From positions 1 to 22,699 of IMG/VR virus record IMGVR_UViG_3300024252_000090: 22,699 bases of DNA. One strand, given 5' to 3'. Shown piece by piece: positions 1 to 22,699 of the stretch (its first letter is position 1; the number at the start of each line of letters is the position of its first letter). Both the position numbers and the translations under genes were made by a program. The DNA comes from a virus. A model generated the notes under the pieces. It had not been told where the DNA came from. It worked only from the letters and a program-made list of their open reading frames with translations, and ran no database searches.

Positions 1-1
1 T

Positions 2-145
2 TATTGCTCCAGCTGGAGCAACGCTAAGATTGAGCTGGAAGAAATTTATGAAGCCGTGTTTGGTGACAATGCTATTAATAAGTATAGCCACGCTGAACTG
101 ATAGAGAGACTGTTTGAGATGTATGATAAATACATAACTAAATAA
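2..145 (+). CDS. C-terminal end of an unknown protein (5' end outside window)
   Basis: An open frame runs from the left edge to a TAA at 143-145 and encodes about 47 acidic, helix-prone residues ending in YDKYITK. Only the C-terminus is visible and I do not recognise a family. Its stop overlaps the ATG of the next small ORF (taATG). The first bases of the visible part contain a perfect 18-bp palindrome and look richer in G+C than the genes that follow. Without the upstream sequence the product cannot be named. Confidence 0.5.
   Translation, partial: YCSSWSNAKIELEEIYEAVFGDNAINKYSHAELIERLFEMYDKYITK
4..21. repeat. Perfect 18-bp palindrome
   Basis: TTGCTCCAGCTGGAGCAA is identical to its reverse complement over all 18 bases. 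It lies inside the coding frame that ends at 145. With no T-run after it, an intrinsic terminator is unlikely. It could be a protein-binding site or chance, and its left context is cut off by the window edge. Confidence 0.7.
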
Positions 146-3949: not shown

Positions 3950-5698
3950 ATGTTATTTGTAGATATAGAAACGAATGATATTAAAGCTACTAAAATATGG
4001 TGTGTATGTGCTAAAGATTTAGATGGTAATAGCTATGAATGGAGAAGGGATGTTACCTTTGAAGGACTACAAGAAGTTTTAGATAGTTATGACAAGATTA
4101 GTTTTCATAATGGTATAGGGTTTGATATACCGATTCTTAAAAATATATTAAATATAAATATAGATCAAGATAAAGTAGTAGATACTTTAGTTCTTTCAAG
4201 GCTAGCCAATCCTTCCAAAGAGGGTGGACATTCCTTAAAAGCTTGGGGAGAATATTTAGGGAATTATAAAGGTGATTATAATAACTGGCTTTTTTTAACC
4301 GATGAGATGGTAGCTTACTGTCATCAAGATGTGGAAGTTACTATTCAAACTTATAAACATTTAATAAAAGTATTGAAAGGTTTTAGCCCAAAGTCTATTA
4401 ATCTTGAACATGAAGTACAATGGATTATTCAAGAACAGATTAGAAATGGTGTCTTATTTAATGAAGAGAAAGCATATATACTTTTAGGTAAACTCTTGGA
4501 GAAACAGATAATACTTAAAGATGAAGTACAACAAGTATTCATACCTCTACCTACTCCTATAAGAGAGGTACAGCCCAAGTATAAGAAAGATGGTAGCTTA
4601 TCTATAGTAGGATTGAAAGCCTTGGAGAACCCTTTAAAGACAGTACAAGGAGCATTCACACTTATAGAGTTCAAAGAATTTAACTTAGGTAGTAGACAAC
4701 AGATAGCTCAATATCTTATTAGGTTTGGTTGGAAGCCTAAAGACTTTACTGATAAAGGTAATATCATTATTGATGAAGGTGTTTTGGCTAAAGTAAAGGA
4801 TATAAAAGAAGCTCTTTTAATTAAAGAATATATGCTTGTTAGTAAAAGGATATCAGCTATCAATGGTAAGAAGAAATCTAATGGTACTGGAGGCGGTTGG
4901 TTGACTCATATTAATAGTGATGGTAGGATTCATGGTAATGTAAATACTTGTGGTGCTGTCACTGGTAGGATGACTCATAGTAGTCCTAATATGGCACAAG
5001 TACCTTCAATATCTTCACCCTATGGTAAGGAGAGTAGAGAGCTATTTATAGTATCTAAAAATTATAAGTTAGTTGGTTGTGATGCATCAGGTTTAGAATT
5101 AAGAATGTTGGCTCATTATATGAATGATGAGAAGTATACCAATACTATCCTTACAGGAGATATACATACAGCTAATCAGAATGCTGCTGGATTACCTACT
5201 AGAGATATGGCTAAGACTTTCATCTATGGTTTTTTATATGGGGCTGGTGATGCTAAGATAGGAGAGATTGTAGGTAAGGGAGCTAAAGAAGGTAAAAAAT
5301 TAAAAGAAACTTTCTTAAACAATACTCCTGCCTTAAAGATCTTAAGAGATAAAGTATTGGTAGCTAGTGAAAGAGGTTATCTTAAAGGTTTAGATGGTAG
5401 AAAATTACATGTAAGAAGCACTCATGCAGCTTTGAATGTCTTATTACAAGGTGGTGGAGCCATAGTTATGAAGAAGGCATTAGCTTTAGTTTATAAGTAT
5501 TCTAAAGAAGAGAACTTAGATTTTAAATTAGTTCTCAATATTCATGATGAGTGGCAGTGTGAAGTTAAAGAAGAAGATAGTATTAGATTTGGAGAGTTAA
5601 GTGTTAAAGCTATTAAAGACGCTGGAGATTACTTCAACTTTAGATGTCCCTTAGATGGGGAATATAAGATTGGAGATAGTTGGTATGATACACATTAA
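3950..5698 (+). CDS. DNA polymerase, family A, T7 gp5-like, with 3'-5' exonuclease
   Basis: Start ATG 3950 is placed 5 bases after GGAGG (3940-3944); an upstream in-frame TTG at 3935 lies inside the preceding small gene. The 582-residue protein carries the proofreading exonuclease motifs DIETN (D5, E7), FHNGIGFDIP (D59) and YCHQD (D127). The polymerase motifs are A CDASGLELR (D378), B RDMAKTFIYGFLYGAG (R418, K422, Y426) and C IHDEW (H532, D533). Tyr at the O-helix position matches T7 polymerase. Similarity to T7 gp5 is strong around GRIHGNVNTCGAVTGR. It is about 120 residues shorter than T7 gp5 (704). The loop corresponding to the thioredoxin-binding insertion (about residues 195-245) is much reduced, and another insertion before GLDGRKLHVRS is missing. 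It is the phage replicase and works with the helicase just upstream. Confidence 0.96.
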   Translation: MLFVDIETNDIKATKIWCVCAKDLDGNSYEWRRDVTFEGLQEVLDSYDKISFHNGIGFDIPILKNILNINIDQDKVVDTLVLSRLANPSKEGGHSLKAWGEYLGNYKGDYNNWLFLTDEMVAYCHQDVEVTIQTYKHLIKVLKGFSPKSINLEHEVQWIIQEQIRNGVLFNEEKAYILLGKLLEKQIILKDEVQQVFIPLPTPIREVQPKYKKDGSLSIVGLKALENPLKTVQGAFTLIEFKEFNLGSRQQIAQYLIRFGWKPKDFTDKGNIIIDEGVLAKVKDIKEALLIKEYMLVSKRISAINGKKKSNGTGGGWLTHINSDGRIHGNVNTCGAVTGRMTHSSPNMAQVPSISSPYGKESRELFIVSKNYKLVGCDASGLELRMLAHYMNDEKYTNTILTGDIHTANQNAAGLPTRDMAKTFIYGFLYGAGDAKIGEIVGKGAKEGKKLKETFLNNTPALKILRDKVLVASERGYLKGLDGRKLHVRSTHAALNVLLQGGGAIVMKKALALVYKYSKEENLDFKLVLNIHDEWQCEVKEEDSIRFGELSVKAIKDAGDYFNFRCPLDGEYKIGDSWYDTH

Positions 5699-11012: not shown

Positions 11013-11588
11013 ATGGATGTTAAAGTAGTAAAAGAAGAAGGATATGAAGAAGCCCTTTTAGGTCTGGGGCTTTCCTTTTATAAAGAGAGTGAAGACTTAG
11101 ACCTATGGTGGGATGATAAGAAGTTAGATAAGATGAGGAAAGTAGCTAAGAAACTAAGCCAGAAAGGTCCCAGCCATAGTAAGTTTATTAGGTTATGTAA
11201 TCTAACTATTCTTATTAAAGCTCCCAGATTCTTTTGGTCAGAGTTTGATACTTATAAGATAGGTACTACAGGTTTAAGTGCTTCAACTATGCATACATTG
11301 TTAAAAGAACCTTTAACTCAACAACATTTTGAGTATCCTTTATTAGGTACATATTTAGATTATTTAAATAGACTTATAAAAGAAGGTAACTTTAAGATAG
11401 AGTCAATGAAGAATGCGTTGCCAGAAGGCTATTTACAAACTAGATTAATCTTAATGAACTATCAAACCTTAAGAACTATTATAGCTCAAAGACAAAATCA
11501 TAGATTACCACAATGGAGAATGTTTATTAAAAAAATGAAAGAACAAGTTAAGTATAAAGAATTATTGGAAGGAGTAAATTATGAGTGA
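11013..11588 (+). CDS. Conserved phage protein, divergent ThyX-like
   Basis: The 191-residue protein has the blocks 'SHSKFIRLCNLTILIKAPRF', 'WSEFDTYKIGTT', 'SASTMH' and 'LPEGYLQTR', followed by 'NYQTLRTIIAQRQNHRLPQW'. I recall a widespread phage family with these blocks. Their order and spacing parallel flavin-dependent thymidylate synthase ThyX ('RHR..S.NE.S', then an R/N-rich helix with R..QW). The ThyX RHRxxS signature itself is not kept, so ordinary dUMP methylation should not be assumed. Its place near DUF3310 and the reductase suits a nucleotide-metabolism role. GAGG about 10 bases before ATG 11013 is the SD. It overlaps the next gene by 8 bases. Confidence 0.6.
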   Translation: MDVKVVKEEGYEEALLGLGLSFYKESEDLDLWWDDKKLDKMRKVAKKLSQKGPSHSKFIRLCNLTILIKAPRFFWSEFDTYKIGTTGLSASTMHTLLKEPLTQQHFEYPLLGTYLDYLNRLIKEGNFKIESMKNALPEGYLQTRLILMNYQTLRTIIAQRQNHRLPQWRMFIKKMKEQVKYKELLEGVNYE

Positions 11589-11715
11589 ATTATTATTAGT
11601 ATTTATTATTAGTTTTCTATTAGGTATATATAGTACAAGAATAGATATTAAAGTTAATACTTGGTTAAAAAATAGAAAGAATAAAATAGATGAACATGAA
11701 GGAGAAAGTGTATGA
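11581..11715 (+). CDS. 44-residue membrane protein
   Basis: ATG 11581 is preceded by AAGGAG (about 11567-11573) and overlaps the upstream stop by 8 bases (ATGAGTGA). The frame ends at TGA 11713-11715, overlapping the next ATG. An N-terminal hydrophobic helix (ELLLVFIISFLLGIY, residues 3-17) is followed by a charged tail of about 27 residues rich in Lys/Arg/Asn and then Glu. The positive residues after the helix suggest the tail is cytoplasmic. A small holin-like or inner-membrane regulator role is possible but unproven. Confidence 0.6.
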   Translation: MSELLLVFIISFLLGIYSTRIDIKVNTWLKNRKNKIDEHEGESV

Positions 11716-11975
11716 TGGATTATAAAGTATTGGTGGACGAACCTTATTTAGTTATTAGTGATGATTATAGATTAGGACCTAACCCTAAATGGGGTGATGA
11801 AGAGTTCTACTTGGAAGATAATATTGGTAGAGGTATTCCTTTCACTTGGAAAGACTTAGATAAGTTAATTAAGGGTCTTAATAATTTAAAAGTAGTTAAA
11901 GAAGTTATTAAAGAATTGGAAGAAGATAGAGTTGAAAAAAGACTATTTAAGTATTTAAAAGAAAAATTAATTTAA
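11712..11975 (+). CDS. Small protein of unknown function (87 aa)
   Basis: ATG 11712 overlaps the preceding TGA (ATGA) and has GGAG at 11701-11704; ATG 11715 is an alternative. The N-terminal half is beta-like (YKVLVDEPYLVISDDYRLG) with GIPFTWKDLDKLI in the middle, and the C-terminus is a charged helix (VVKEVIKELEEDRVEKRL). It is the last gene of the long + strand operon before a new promoter. The family is not recognised. Confidence 0.6.
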   Translation: MMDYKVLVDEPYLVISDDYRLGPNPKWGDEEFYLEDNIGRGIPFTWKDLDKLIKGLNNLKVVKEVIKELEEDRVEKRLFKYLKEKLI

Positions 11976-11983
11976 AATAAAGC

Positions 11984-12012
11984 TTGACATTTGTGTAGAA
12001 GTATGTTATAAT
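11984..12012 (+). promoter_or_regulatory. Consensus sigma70 promoter with extended -10
   Basis: TTGACA (11984-11989) and TATAAT (12007-12012) are both perfect and 17 bases apart, with TG at 12004-12005 one base before the -10. The expected transcription start is near 12019, and the 76-residue exported protein begins 28 bases later. I saw no comparable promoter between other + strand genes. It would be strongly read by host RNA polymerase and overlaps a perfect inverted repeat (see the operator entry). Confidence 0.92.
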
Positions 12013-12019
12013 ACTTCTA
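11996..12019. promoter_or_regulatory. Inverted repeat over the -10, probable operator
   Basis: TAGAAGTAT (11996-12004) and ATACTTCTA (12011-12019) are perfect reverse complements with a 6-base centre, spanning the -10 and the predicted start site. Two 9-bp half-sites 15 bases apart centre to centre suit a dimeric repressor that would block the promoter. The same sequence could fold into a hairpin in DNA, but only its last bases are in the RNA, so a DNA-level operator is the better reading. No repressor gene is recognised in the window. Confidence 0.65.
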
Positions 12020-12046
12020 TCTTTTAATTAAACAAGGAATATAAAT

Positions 12047-12277
12047 ATGAATAAAGTAATTGTAAGTGGTATGGTAGGAATTTTAGCTATGAGTAGTGCT
12101 CAAGCTTTTTGGGATTTCAGTGATAATCTAGAAGGTAAAGGTACTTTTGAGATGTCTATGAAGGTTGATAGTTTGTATGATACGGCTGCTGATTTAGAAA
12201 GTAATGGCTACTTTATGGAAGCAAATAAAATCTATCATAAAGAATATTTAAAAGCTAACCCTTATAGTATTGACTAA
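12047..12277 (+). CDS. Exported small protein with TPR-like hairpin (moron-type gene)
   Basis: The 76-residue protein has a signal peptide: MNK, a hydrophobic core VIVSGMVGILAM, then SSAQA with likely cleavage after A20. The mature part is about 56 residues, begins FWDFSDN and should lie in the periplasm of a Gram-negative host. Residues 46-72 (DTAADLESNGYFMEANKIYH, then KEYLKANPYS) fit a single tetratricopeptide-like helical hairpin (G-Y..EA..Y....K.NP). SD AAGGA (12034-12038) is 8 bases before ATG. Unlike its neighbours the gene has its own consensus promoter and terminator, and it does not overlap any gene. A host-acquired or host-modifying role (envelope stress, exclusion of other phages, protection) is inferred. 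The exact function is unknown. Confidence 0.82.
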   Translation: MNKVIVSGMVGILAMSSAQAFWDFSDNLEGKGTFEMSMKVDSLYDTAADLESNGYFMEANKIYHKEYLKANPYSID

Positions 12278-12298
12278 TCTTAATATTATATAGACGAT

Positions 12299-12341
12299 AA
12301 AAAAACCCTTAAGGACATTATAGTTCTTAAGGGTTTTTTTT
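12299..12341. terminator. Bidirectional intrinsic terminator between convergent operons
   Basis: AAAAAAACCCTTAAG (12299-12313) pairs with CTTAAGGGTTTTTTT (12326-12340). The stem extends inward through GAC/GTT with one G-U pair, leaving the loop ATTATA. A-run and T-run flank the two sides, so it should stop transcription from the + strand moron gene and from the - strand virion genes. Confidence 0.93.
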
Positions 12342-12373
12342 ATTTAAGGGTTTTTTTATTTAAGGGTTTTATT
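12326..12373. repeat. Three tandem copies of the terminator 3' arm
   Basis: TTAAGGG followed by a T-run occurs at about 12327, 12344 and 12360 (period 17 and 16). Each copy could pair with the single CCCTTAA arm upstream. The last codons and stop of the - strand gene (PLNKTLK, TAA at 12356-12358) are built from these repeats. Confidence 0.8.
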
Positions 12374-13780
12374 TAAAGGATTCTTTAATGTATAACCCTT
12401 ATTCTTTAATTTAGTTGTCACGTTAGTTCTCTCACTATCATGTATTATATTACCTTTTCTTTTTAGATGATAACGTTTATAAAGTTCTAAGAAGTCCTCA
12501 ATCTTTTTATCTTTTAAAAGTTCTTTAATATAATGATCTGAACCTTTATCAGTAACATCACCAGGTTTTCTACCTTGTCTAAATAGGTTAGCTAGTAATA
12601 CAGCCGTTGCTTGATCCTTATTAAGTTTACGAGCATCCTTATGTTCTTTCAAATTAGTAAACCATTCTGGTTCATTAGTACTATCACCAAAGTAATGATT
12701 ATTCCTAGACATTCTATTAGTAGCTGAGGTTATTTCACTAGGTCTAAATTGATATAAACCTCTGGCTGAGTCTGTAGGGTTATTGGTATCGTAGGTATAA
12801 GCATTACTATTATTAGTTGACTCAATATCAGCAAACCTATCTGCAATATCTTCCAAGGATTTAACATTCTTAGAGTTATATTTATCTAATCTAATAAGTT
12901 CCTTAGCTATTATATTCTTAGTCTCAGGGTTGGACGGAGTGTTAGCTTCAAAGTCTATAACTTCTTCCTTAACTTCTTCCTTAACTTCTTCTTTATTTAC
13001 CAAACCTCTTTGAGCATACCCTGGTTTATTTATTAAAGCATCTAAAGTAGTAAAAGGTACTCTTGTAATACCTTCAGCTCTCTTTATACTTTGCTCTATT
13101 AAGTTATTGGAAGATAAATAATCTCTTCCTTCTTCAGCTGCTCTTCTACCCCAATCAACACCTACTTGATTCTCTTCATAATCGTGACCAGCATCAGCCT
13201 CACCTTTACTAGTTAAACTAAGCATATAATCTTTTCGTTGATATAAATAACCCCAAGAATCTCTTATTTCTTCAACTTCCTTAGCATCTTCTATATTACC
13301 TTCCGATCTTAATTTTTGTATAAGTTTAGTAGTCTTATATCCCCAATCATAACCACCCATTATATTCTCAGTTTGATCTAGCTCCCCTTGATCTAAATAT
13401 TTATATTCATTAACAAGCTTATCTTCCAAGTGGATATGATGGTCTATATGCTTATCAGCTATAGCCTTATATTTAGTTTCTCTTAATTCTTTTGCTTCCA
13501 TACCTTTCTTATAGAACTCCCAAACACCCATCTCTGACATAGGATTAGGACGAGCTTTAAGTGGTTCATCGTCTTTAAGTGGTTCATCGTCTTTATTAAC
13601 AGGTATAAAAGAACCTGTTGTTATATCATAGACTGATGTGATATCCTCACCACCATCATAAGGTCTTCCTTTATTTAAGTCTAAGGTACTTTCATTTTCT
13701 TCTTGACCTACTAAATCATTAACTTCATCAGTACTTTTATTTTCTTCTAGTAAATCATCTAAGTGTATGCTAGTCTCCAT
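12356..13780 (-). CDS. Virion protein with C-terminal lytic-transglycosylase-like domain
   Basis: The N-terminal about 280 residues of this 474-residue protein are acidic and low in recognisable motifs. They contain tandem repeats KDDEPLKDDEPLK (63-75) and EEVKEEVKEEV (264-274). The C-terminal part (about 290-440) has an SLT-like pattern: IADRFADIESTNNS with candidate catalytic Glu320, SARGLYQFRPSEI (338-350), TAVLLANLF, and LELYKRYH near the end. This matches soluble lytic transglycosylases that cut peptidoglycan glycan strands. In T7 the equivalent activity sits at the N-terminus of internal protein gp16 and helps DNA entry. Here it is probably a separate ejected or virion-borne hydrolase. 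The start (rc ATG at 13778-13780) follows AGGA in the end of the upstream gene. It is the last gene of the virion operon and ends in the shared terminator. Confidence 0.72.
   Translation of the reverse strand: METSIHLDDLLEENKSTDEVNDLVGQEENESTLDLNKGRPYDGGEDITSVYDITTGSFIPVNKDDEPLKDDEPLKARPNPMSEMGVWEFYKKGMEAKELRETKYKAIADKHIDHHIHLEDKLVNEYKYLDQGELDQTENIMGGYDWGYKTTKLIQKLRSEGNIEDAKEVEEIRDSWGYLYQRKDYMLSLTSKGEADAGHDYEENQVGVDWGRRAAEEGRDYLSSNNLIEQSIKRAEGITRVPFTTLDALINKPGYAQRGLVNKEEVKEEVKEEVIDFEANTPSNPETKNIIAKELIRLDKYNSKNVKSLEDIADRFADIESTNNSNAYTYDTNNPTDSARGLYQFRPSEITSATNRMSRNNHYFGDSTNEPEWFTNLKEHKDARKLNKDQATAVLLANLFRQGRKPGDVTDKGSDHYIKELLKDKKIEDFLELYKRYHLKRKGNIIHDSERTNVTTKLKNKGYTLKNPLNKTLK
12961..12991. 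repeat. 12-bp tandem repeat in coding sequence
   Basis: CTTCTTCCTTAA is repeated about 2.6 times and encodes the EEVKEEVKEEV run of the 474-residue - strand protein. It is an in-frame, slippage-type repeat. Confidence 0.75.
13556..13591. repeat. Perfect 18-bp tandem duplication in coding sequence
   Basis: TTTAAGTGGTTCATCGTC is present twice head to tail (13556-13573 and 13574-13591), encoding DDEPLK twice in the 474-residue - strand protein. The perfect match suggests a recent duplication. Confidence 0.85.
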
Positions 13781-19460: not shown

Positions 19461-22400
19461 CTAATCGCCTTCAAAGAAGCTTGTTGTTAGTTCCCACAAA
19501 GCTGTACCAACAGCCGTAGCATTATCTGCTTTAATACCCATAGATTTCAATAACTGATCATTCTCATTTCCCAATGTAGCAATAAGTAATTGAGTCTGTC
19601 TACTCTTACCTTGCTCACCTTCTAAAAACTCCCATTGAGCATTATCTCGTGTCTCTTGCCATAGTTTAGACATGGCATCACTGGAGAGATTAAAAGCATT
19701 GATAGCGTTGGCTTGATTAACAGCATTGATACCTGCCGTATCAGCAGTATTCATATTTCTACGCCATTGAACATTACTGGAATCAATTTGATATTCCATA
19801 GAAGCGTTGAAAGATTCTCTTTGGAACTCTACTTGTTCCTCAAATTGCATTAAAGATTTATATAGTTCTGTATTATAAAGCTCTATTGCTTGATCATTAT
19901 TGGCTTCAATAGCCAAAGCTTTATTCTTTTCAGTAGCATTAAACATCTCCATACTATCATCTCTAGCTTTATTATTAAGCTCAATGTTAGATTGTAAAGT
20001 AGAAATAAATTTATTTATATCATTTTCAGTAGAGGAAGCAAATTGTTTAGCTGCATTCTCCACCGCTACATTACTTAATAGTACTTGTTGAGACCATTGA
20101 TCATTGAGAATCTCAGCTTGTTGACTATTACTTAAATTAGCTATATCTAGTTGTAAGAAATGTTTAGCATTCTCTACCTGTGCTTGTTGACTATTACTTA
20201 AATCAGTCATATCTAAAGCAGCCATGTTAGTGGCATTAAGCATAGCTCCTTGCTGTCTATTACTTAGATCTGTAACTGTCATGGTTTGTAAGAACTTACT
20301 ATTAGCTAACTCTACTTGTTGATTGAGATCTAACGTCTTAAGATCAATATTCAACTCTGCTTGTGCATTAAAGGTAGCTGCTTGTTGAGCGTTACTTAAA
20401 TTAGCAATGCCCATCTGTTGGGCAAGTTCAGTATTATATTTACCTACCTCAACTCTAGATTGAAATTCAGCTAAAGCAGTCTGCTGATCTACTGTCATCT
20501 GATCTCTACTAGCTTCATTAAGAGCTGCAAGGTTAGCAAACTCTACCTTACCTTCCATATCAAGGTTAACTAACTTAACATCTTGACTTAGTTGTTGAAA
20601 GAACTTATCTGAATCTACAGTTGCTTGCCATTGAGATAAATTACTTTGTTGTTCAGTAGAGAACTGTGCTCTAAAAGAAGTATTCTTCTCAGCCATTACA
20701 GCTAAATCTACGTTAGTAGTAACATCTAAGTTCTTAAACTCTAAGGCTTGTGCTAGCTGTGTATTGAACTGACCATTAGATACTTTAGTCTGATATTCAG
20801 CCAAAGCAGACTGTTGGTCCACATTCATCTGATCTCTACTAGCTTCATTAAGAGCTGAAAGGTTAGCAAACTCTACCTTACCTTCCATATCAAGATTAGC
20901 TAACTTAATCTGAGTCCCTAACTGCTGAAAGAACTTATCTGAATCTACAGTTGCTTGCCACTCTAAGACAGCTTCTTGTTGATCAATACTGAATGTCTCT
21001 CTAAAGGCTTCATTCTTAGCTTGCATATTAGCCAAAGCTACATTAGTAGTTACATCTAAGTTCTTAAAGTTAAGAGCTTGTGCTAGTTGTGTATTGAACT
21101 GACCATTAGATACTTTAGATTGGAACTCAGTAAGAGATTTCTTCTCTTCAAAAGTCATAGAAGCTAGATCAGCTTGTGACTTAGCTTGTAGGTTAGCAAA
21201 CTCTACCTTACCTTCCATATCAAGATTAGCTAGTTCCATTTGCTGTTGGAACTGTTCATTATTAGCTACAAAGTTTACATATTGATTAAGTTTACCTAGA
21301 CGTAGCTGATTCTCTACAGACATATTAGCAGCATCAGCAGTATTCAAAGCACTGAGATTCGCCAGCTCTAACTGTAGATCATTACTTAGATTAACTTGAG
21401 TCATCTGCTGAGCAAAGTCAGCATTCTTAACCTTAAAGTTAATTAGAGTCTCATACTCTTTCAGTTCTTGTTGTGCATCAAAAGTAAACTGCTCACTCTG
21501 AGACTGATTCATAGCTCTCAAGTTTTCTACTCGTATTGACTGCTCATTAGTCAAGTTAGCCATGCGAATATCTTGAGTTAAGTTAGCTTGTAACTCATTA
21601 GCTCTTTGTTGATTATCTTGATTCTTGTTTGCTTGTAACTGCAAAGTTTGTGCGTTGCTTTGTGCAATAGGAGTAGCAGCAGTAATGATAGCATTAAATA
21701 ATGAGTCTCTAGCAATAGAGGATCGACCCATACCTCTAGCAGCAAGGGCAGCATCTACTTTCTCTACAGCAGGTCTTGCCCATGTAGGTATCTCATTATT
21801 CTCTAAAGGCTCTAGAAGAGTTTCTAGTTGACTAGACACTAATGCTTCTATAGGCATTTGAGCAATAGCAGCAATTACTTTAGGGTCATCTAAGTCATCT
21901 AAGGCTGCTTCACCTTGAGTGATTTCTCTTACCGCTTCCCCTACTTTATCTGAGCCAGAAACTACCGATGCAGTGCCTCCTGTGATAGCTCCTATAGTAG
22001 CTGCATAATTAGCGGGAGCAGTACTGTCTAAGATCTTGTTAATCTCTCCTTCAGTAATATGAGCAGCCTCACCTAAGATCTCAGTATCAATTGTAGAGAC
22101 TTGCTTAGCTACATCAGCAACATTACTATTTATTTCGTTAGTAGAACCTTGAGCCACTTCTGCAGTAGTAGTAGCAGTCTTTCTAGTAGCTACTTCTCCT
22201 ACTTCACCTATAGCAATCTGAGAAGGTCCTTCAGCTATTAGATCTTTAGTAACAGTATCTACTAACCTAGTAACACCTGTTACAGGGTCTTGTATAATAT
22301 TAACTGACCGACCTGCTTGAGTAGCTTGAGTAAAAGCAGACTTCAATTCAGGAGTTTGTAAGTCGTTAATAGTAAGTTTATCAGGTCCTTCAGCTTCTAA

Positions 22401-22699
22401 GGTTTTATCAATAGTCGTTACATCCCTTGTAACACCTTCTACATCTGTAATAGGTTCTACCTGCTCTGCTTTACCTTCAGCACCTTCCATAGTTACGTCT
22501 GTAATAGATGTTTGTTCTTCAGCAAGAGCCGCTACTTCGCCAGCTTTTGCTCTTTTAGCTGCTTCGGCTTCTGCGGTAAGACCTTCTGATTTAACTTCTT
22601 CTACTTGTTGAGTAAGAGTATCTTTTGTCTGTGCTTGAGTTAAAGCTTCATCTCTTTGTACATCACTAATAGTTTTGACATTATCTTCATAAGTTTTAG
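19461..22699 (-). CDS. Very long virion rod protein with 55- and 22-residue repeats (N-terminus outside window)
   Basis: The frame stays open through the right edge. The first internal ATG is at 22488-22490, but 69 more codons (A/E/Q/T-rich) lie upstream without a stop, so at least 1078 residues are encoded. Numbered from that ATG, residues 1-300 are variable, with a duplicated (L)xAEGP segment (31 and 84) and a Gly/Ala stretch (165-180). From residue 312 the motif (A/V/K)NL(D/S/T) recurs at 312, 367, 422, 477, 532, 587, 642 and 697, exactly 55 residues apart, then every 22 residues to 807. Both are multiples of 11, as in hendecad coiled coils. The C-terminal about 200 residues are Asn/Gln-rich helices. 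I infer a long fibrous virion component (tail fibre stalk, internal core or tape-like protein). No enzymatic motif is seen. Confidence 0.7.
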   Translation of the reverse strand, partial: KTYEDNVKTISDVQRDEALTQAQTKDTLTQQVEEVKSEGLTAEAEAAKRAKAGEVAALAEEQTSITDVTMEGAEGKAEQVEPITDVEGVTRDVTTIDKTLEAEGPDKLTINDLQTPELKSAFTQATQAGRSVNIIQDPVTGVTRLVDTVTKDLIAEGPSQIAIGEVGEVATRKTATTTAEVAQGSTNEINSNVADVAKQVSTIDTEILGEAAHITEGEINKILDSTAPANYAATIGAITGGTASVVSGSDKVGEAVREITQGEAALDDLDDPKVIAAIAQMPIEALVSSQLETLLEPLENNEIPTWARPAVEKVDAALAARGMGRSSIARDSLFNAIITAATPIAQSNAQTLQLQANKNQDNQQRANELQANLTQDIRMANLTNEQSIRVENLRAMNQSQSEQFTFDAQQELKEYETLINFKVKNADFAQQMTQVNLSNDLQLELANLSALNTADAANMSVENQLRLGKLNQYVNFVANNEQFQQQMELANLDMEGKVEFANLQAKSQADLASMTFEEKKSLTEFQSKVSNGQFNTQLAQALNFKNLDVTTNVALANMQAKNEAFRETFSIDQQEAVLEWQATVDSDKFFQQLGTQIKLANLDMEGKVEFANLSALNEASRDQMNVDQQSALAEYQTKVSNGQFNTQLAQALEFKNLDVTTNVDLAVMAEKNTSFRAQFSTEQQSNLSQWQATVDSDKFFQQLSQDVKLVNLDMEGKVEFANLAALNEASRDQMTVDQQTALAEFQSRVEVGKYNTELAQQMGIANLSNAQQAATFNAQAELNIDLKTLDLNQQVELANSKFLQTMTVTDLSNRQQGAMLNATNMAALDMTDLSNSQQAQVENAKHFLQLDIANLSNSQQAEILNDQWSQQVLLSNVAVENAAKQFASSTENDINKFISTLQSNIELNNKARDDSMEMFNATEKNKALAIEANNDQAIELYNTELYKSLMQFEEQVEFQRESFNASMEYQIDSSNVQWRRNMNTADTAGINAVNQANAINAFNLSSDAMSKLWQETRDNAQWEFLEGEQGKSRQTQLLIATLGNENDQLLKSMGIKADNATAVGTALWELTTSFFEGD
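20073..21557 (-). repeat. Protein repeat array: eight 55-residue spacings then 22-residue units
   Basis: The NL/DL landmark positions in the long virion protein are spaced 55 residues seven times in a row, then 22 residues five times, with no insertion or deletion. 55 is five and 22 is two hendecads, pointing to a continuous right-handed-type coiled-coil rod. Confidence 0.88.
20461..21235 (-). repeat. 330-bp near-identical tandem DNA repeat
   Basis: Words such as GGTTAGCAAACTCTACCTTA occur at 20531, 20861 and 21191, and GAATCTACAGTTGCTTGCCA at 20611 and 20941. GTATTGAACTGACCATTAGA occurs at 20761 and 21091. All are exactly 330 bases apart. The unit equals two 55-residue protein repeats and points to recent duplication of a double unit. 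Confidence 0.92.

What the first reader, a model, noticed from the sequence alone, without database searches (positions are those of the whole stretch)
11984..12341. Self-contained 'moron' cassette: consensus promoter, exported 76-aa protein, terminator
The sequence shows a perfect TTGACA-17-TATAAT promoter with TG extension, a gene with signal peptide and TPR-like hairpin, and a strong terminator. It sits at the junction of two long converging operons whose other genes are packed and promoterless. This is the layout of phage morons (independently transcribed genes that alter the host). The product's fold, a single exported TPR-like hairpin, is unusual and I do not know a described counterpart.
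Basis: partly seen in the sequence, partly recalled or inferred. Interest (0 to 1): 0.75.

Follow-up and report, generated by a model that had tools for sequence, protein, structure and literature searches.

The report
Phage's exported small protein gene
A low-GC (probably marine) virus of bacteria carries, where its two gene blocks meet, a tiny gene with its own strong host-type promoter that makes a protein sent out through the cell membrane; a distant sister virus has a very different version at the same spot, so it looks like a resident, fast-changing gene (perhaps one that keeps rival phages out) and not a freshly inserted cassette.

Summary
The promoter, signal-peptide ORF and strong hairpin are really there, and the promoter is beyond chance (TTGACA-17-TATAAT with TG; 0.055 expected per window for 12/12, none of 200 simulations also had TG). 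'Self-contained moron' is only partly right. The terminator is bidirectional and also ends the converging operon. No terminator separates the gene from the upstream operon, so read-through is expected. The one relative whose junction is held (L006; NrdJ 83%, ThyX-like 69% identical) has a diverged exported protein at the same place and orientation (BLASTP E 0.009; shuffle p about 0.003), with a weaker promoter and its own bidirectional terminator. That argues for a resident, fast-evolving accessory gene, not an inserted block. The TPR-like hairpin is inconclusive: AF2 gives two helices at moderate confidence, Foldseek's top hits are mostly TPRs but at E of 3 or more, Pfam finds nothing, and L006 shows no such motif. 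Best guess: a periplasmic accessory factor made early by host RNA polymerase, most likely acting on the envelope or excluding superinfecting phages, working like (not homologous to) T4 Spackle. Function untested. New member of a known kind; modest interest.

The parts
11984..12012 (+). sigma-70-type promoter TTGACA-17-TATAAT with TG extension; predicted start at about A12019
   Evidence: 12/12 match; 0.055 expected per window, 0 with TG in 200 Markov copies
11996..12019 (.). perfect 9-bp inverted repeat TAGAAGTAT-GTTATA-ATACTTCTA overlapping the -10 and start site; candidate operator
   Evidence: (I13); no second copy in the window at 4 or fewer mismatches
12034..12038 (+). Shine-Dalgarno AAGGA, 8 nt before the ATG
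12047..12277 (+). 76-aa ORF, signal-peptide-like residues 1-20, mature part 56 aa and acidic
   Evidence: probable divergent homologue at L006:4440-4748
12297..12345 (.). bidirectional intrinsic terminator shared by the two converging operons
   Evidence: same arrangement at L006 about 4763-4804
12344..12376 (.). two further partial copies of the TTAAGGGTTTTT arm of the terminator; one 16-bp copy can pair perfectly with the 5' arm
   Evidence: D2, I4
11712..11975 (+). last gene of the rightward operon before the promoter; no terminator between it and the exported-protein gene
12356..13780 (-). last gene of the converging operon, 474 aa, with a lysozyme/transglycosylase-like motif
   Evidence: Pfam Phage_lysozyme2 only at E 0.072

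Best explanation
The locus is a resident, fast-evolving accessory gene of a small group of low-GC phages with T7/podovirus-like replication genes. It encodes a Sec-exported periplasmic protein (56 aa mature), made by the host's own sigma-70 RNA polymerase from an internal promoter at the end of the rightward operon, topped up by read-through, and ended by a terminator that also stops the leftward operon. The dyad over the -10 may let a dimeric DNA-binding protein tune it. The most likely job is to act on the host envelope during infection, above all to exclude superinfecting phages, in the manner of T4 Spackle (periplasmic, alpha-helical, early). Shown: promoter, ORF, hairpin and dyad as sequence. 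Probable: export, homology with L006. Inferred only: timing, operator, exclusion.
For: 12/12 extended promoter. Only predicted signal peptide among 26 window proteins. Bidirectional terminator here and in L006. L006 has a 102-aa exported-type protein at the same junction and orientation, colinear match E 0.009, shuffle p 0.0028 for the mature parts. L006 has TTTACT-17-TATAAT upstream, 10/12, chance 1.5% for an 85-nt region. The protein is far more diverged (29%) than its neighbours: NrdJ 83%, ThyX-like 69%, 712-aa protein 41%. T4 Spackle precedent: 97-aa early periplasmic helical protein, 75 aa mature, that inhibits the tail lysozyme (PMC7677548).
Against: No family match in Pfam, NCBIfam, PHROGs or PADLOC and no cultured relative, so function is not supported by homology. 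Only two distinct junctions are known. The neighbouring lysozyme-like gene is not next to the gene in L006, which weakens an inhibitor-of-neighbour model. Promoter use, export and host are unverified. The protein has no cysteines, whereas Spackle has a disulfide.
Confidence: 0.4

Rival explanations
1. True moron: a cassette gained by insertion, present or absent as a block, expressed from its own promoter to change the host.
For: Own consensus promoter and an exported product with no match in phage libraries; almost no gene of this kind in relatives searched.
Against: The only relative with a readable junction keeps a probable homologue at the same site; the terminator is shared; no base-composition step at the gene.
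Confidence: 0.25
2. A lysis-stage or virion-related gene (for example an envelope factor helping lysis or a late minor component) that happens to have a good promoter.
For: It lies beside the gene block that includes a lysozyme-like protein (weak) and no holin, endolysin or spanin was recognised in the window.
Against: No lipobox cysteine or second transmembrane segment; transcribed with the replication operon, away from the structural genes; host-type promoter.
Confidence: 0.15
3. A phage copy of a small exported protein of the host (auxiliary gene taken from the host).
For: The signal peptide with an alanine-aromatic cleavage site in both phages looks bacterial; the promoter is host-type.
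Against: No convincing homologue among 84,980 species genomes with a close-relative search (its one hit, L040, lies inside a 1233-aa repetitive protein and is chance) or in plasmids. The search only reaches close relatives.
Confidence: 0.15
4. The promoter serves something else (for example a small RNA ending at the terminator) and the ORF is incidental.
For: The transcript would be only about 320 nt (from the predicted start to the terminator).
Against: Good Shine-Dalgarno, signal peptide, probable homologue with the same features in L006; no Rfam family.
Confidence: 0.05

Closest known systems
T4 Spackle (gp61.3), superinfection-exclusion protein
   Same: Small phage protein with a cleaved export signal (97 aa, 75 mature), alpha-helical, made early, works in the periplasm (PMC7677548)
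   Different: No sequence match; no cysteines here while Spackle has a disulfide; predicted fold here is at best two helices; function untested
Phage/prophage morons of lambdoid phages
   Same: Accessory gene with its own promoter and a terminator
   Different: Terminator shared by two operons; probable homologue kept at the same site in the relative; no presence/absence shown; no sign of lysogeny in the fragment
TPR and Sel1-like repeat proteins (CpoB/YbgF, H. pylori HcpC)
   Same: The predicted helix pair is ranked nearest to TPR structures by Foldseek, and HcpC is the only phmmer hit in the PDB
   Different: All scores are insignificant (E of 3 or more, and 0.12); one hairpin only; Pfam TPR models do not match

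Membership tests
Phage moron | own promoter | tested here: met
   12/12 extended promoter directly upstream; use in vivo not tested
Phage moron | own terminator | tested here: inconclusive
   Strong hairpin follows but it is bidirectional and also ends the converging operon
Phage moron | present or absent as a block among close relatives | tested here: not met
   The one relative with a readable junction has a diverged counterpart there; sample of two
Phage moron | expressed to benefit or alter the host, often in lysogeny | not testable with these tools
   no expression data; no integrase or repressor recognised among the proteins read in this fragment
TPR protein | match to a TPR sequence profile | tested here: not met
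   no Pfam family up to E 10
TPR protein | antiparallel helix pair of TPR geometry | tested here: inconclusive
   AF2 without alignment: helices 23-32 and 36-50 of the mature protein, pLDDT about 67-77; with the two-sequence alignment mean 48 and one long helix in this region; Foldseek 12 of 15 hits are TPR proteins but E 3.1-9.5
T4 Spackle-type superinfection exclusion | exported periplasmic small helical protein | tested here: inconclusive
   signal peptide by crude criteria; helices moderate
T4 Spackle-type superinfection exclusion | sequence homology to Spackle | tested here: not met
   no such hit in Pfam, PHROGs, phage tblastn or PDB sequences
T4 Spackle-type superinfection exclusion | binds and inhibits the phage's virion lysozyme | not testable with these tools
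   needs purified proteins

The most novel reading that the evidence does not exclude
A new family of periplasmic exclusion proteins in uncultured phages, evolving fast at a fixed site, expressed from a host-type promoter gated by an operator over its -10, each matched to its own phage's entry apparatus.
Probability: 0.15. Interest if true: 0.5.

Novelty: new member of a known kind. Interest (0 to 1): 0.3.

Why it matters
If the gene excludes rival phages, it would be a case of phage-phage competition in uncultured phages, with a fixed genomic slot where such genes could be looked for. If not, it is still a useful correction: a perfect promoter plus terminator at an operon junction does not by itself make a moron.

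Tried and rejected
Searching IMG/VR with the 76-aa protein, the L006 protein, the ThyX-like protein (alone and as two alignments), the 474-aa and 712-aa proteins and NrdJ: only two distinct phages with this junction emerged; all 8 viral scans are used. L010, L011, L015, L018, L025, L043 share single genes but not the junction. The genome-contig hit L040 (Thermoguttaceae) was rejected as chance. A host among sulphur-oxidising Gammaproteobacteria was considered from memory of similar signal peptides but could not be tested, so it is not claimed; 'probably marine' also rests on memory of the sample types, not on a tool result. Phage isolates share only replication genes (NrdJ at best 61%, primase 35%) or nothing. 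The promoter dyad is not a chance-proof feature in itself: 4 perfect dyads with arms of 9 or more occur in the window against 2.5 expected; only its exact position makes it interesting, and L006 does not share it.

Full report
What is there. The window is a 22,699-bp virus record of 32.6% GC without a match in 50,697 phage records at the DNA level. A rightward block (metallophosphatase-like and ligase-like proteins by reading, primase-helicase, DNA polymerase, an exonuclease-like protein, class II ribonucleotide reductase, ThyX-like protein) meets a leftward block of long, probably virion, proteins at about 12.3 kb; GC skew changes sign there. At the meeting point lies the claimed cassette.

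Promoter. TTGACA-17-TATAAT with TG at 11984-12012 matches 12 of 12 positions. In Markov copies of the window 0.055 sites of 12/12 are expected, and in 200 copies none also had TG. It is the only promoter-like site of 11/12 or better placed before a gene. A perfect 9-bp inverted repeat, TAGAAGTAT-GTTATA-ATACTTCTA (11996-12019), covers the -10 and the predicted start. It lies upstream of, or at, the start of the transcript, so it would act as DNA, as an operator would. Dyads of this size are not rare in this AT-rich sequence (4 found, 2.5 expected), so this is a lead only.

Gene. ORF 12047-12277 has a Shine-Dalgarno and encodes MNKVIVSGMVGILAMSSAQA|FWDF..., a Sec signal by crude criteria (one search reported an earlier A as best-scoring cleavage; the AQA|F site is my reading). 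None of the other 25 window proteins passes; 0.3% of shuffles of the protein do; 4 of 168 random ORFs do. No match in Pfam, NCBIfam, PHROGs, PADLOC.

Terminator. The hairpin at 12297-12345 folds at -22.6 kcal/mol (z -6.2) on the plus and -22.0 (z -6.1) on the minus strand, with A-run and T-run flanks. It therefore serves both operons. The pattern scan did not list it, presumably because its stem runs into the T-run. No terminator lies between the upstream gene and the promoter, so the unit is not insulated.

Relatives. IMG/VR holds near-identical fragments of the same phage (L004: three differences in 6.5 kb, then mismatches where the contig ends inside the terminator; L005, L044, L045) and one distinct phage group (L006, L007, L008, L009). 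L006 alone reaches the junction. There, after the counterpart of the 87-aa gene, stands a 102-aa protein with a signal-like N-terminus (...ATNASA|FFGNN), then a bidirectional terminator (-22.2 and -24.4 kcal/mol), then the leftward block with the 712-aa homologue. The two exported proteins align colinearly over 48 columns, 29% identity, E 0.009 for the single comparison; shuffling gives p 0.0028 for the mature parts. Position, direction and export signal make homology probable. L006 has TTTACT-17-TATAAT before the gene (10/12; 1.5% chance in 85 nt). Thus gene, slot, terminator type and probably promoter persist while the sequence diverges faster than its neighbours (NrdJ 83%, ThyX-like 69%, 712-aa protein 41%).

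Fold. AF2 on the mature protein alone gives two helices (23-32, 36-50) at pLDDT of about 67-77, overall 60; with the two-sequence alignment it gives one long helix there and a mean of 48. Foldseek's 15 hits are mostly TPR proteins (12) but E is 3.1 to 9.5. phmmer's only PDB hit is HcpC (1ouv; a Sel1-like repeat protein, from my own knowledge), E 0.12. L006's protein has no such motif by eye. The TPR idea is possible, not shown.

Mechanism. Export plus a host-type promoter points to action on the envelope of the infected cell early on. Among known phage proteins of this size and location the best-understood is T4 Spackle, which binds the incoming phage's tail lysozyme (PMC7677548). The gene converging on ours encodes a 474-aa protein with a lysozyme-like motif, but Pfam gives only E 0.072, and L006 has a different 105-aa gene at that spot. 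So exclusion is my leading guess, with the target open. Lysis functions and a host-derived auxiliary gene remain possible.

Verdict. A real, well-delimited transcription unit for an exported accessory protein; 'moron' in the strict sense is not supported on a sample of two; interest is modest until more relatives or an experiment give it a function.

Noticed in passing
window 11013-11588 and L006, L010, L011 homologues: ThyX-like protein (phrog_6721, E 4e-32; Pfam Thy1 E 3.7e-5, just under the cut-off) in which the place of the RHR motif of ThyX (recalled, not aligned here) appears to hold SEFDTYK/R-x-G; invariant EFDT in four diverse phage copies. It may be a ThyX-fold protein with altered chemistry.
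   Followed up: partly
window 1-113; L015 94-206: 94.7% identical DNA between the window's left end and a phage contig whose ThyX-like protein is only 55% identical, suggesting recent exchange of a small gene or a chimeric contig end.
   Followed up: partly
window 4-21: Perfect 18-bp palindrome TTGCTCCAGCTGGAGCAA at the extreme contig end, absent from L015, which has TAGTTGGAGCAA there; looks like an assembly fold-back.
   Followed up: partly
L004 end (window 12306-12315): The near-identical contig ends inside the terminator hairpin with five mismatches in ten bases, probably an assembly break at the hairpin.
   Followed up: yes
window 12344-12376: Two extra tandem copies of the terminator's TTAAGGGTTTTT arm at the 3' end of the converging 474-aa gene; they could pair with the 5' arm in place of the main one.
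   Followed up: no
window 19461-22697: A protein of at least 1078 aa, running off the contig, with recurring segments such as NLDMEGKVEFANL; probably an internal virion or tail protein.
   Followed up: no
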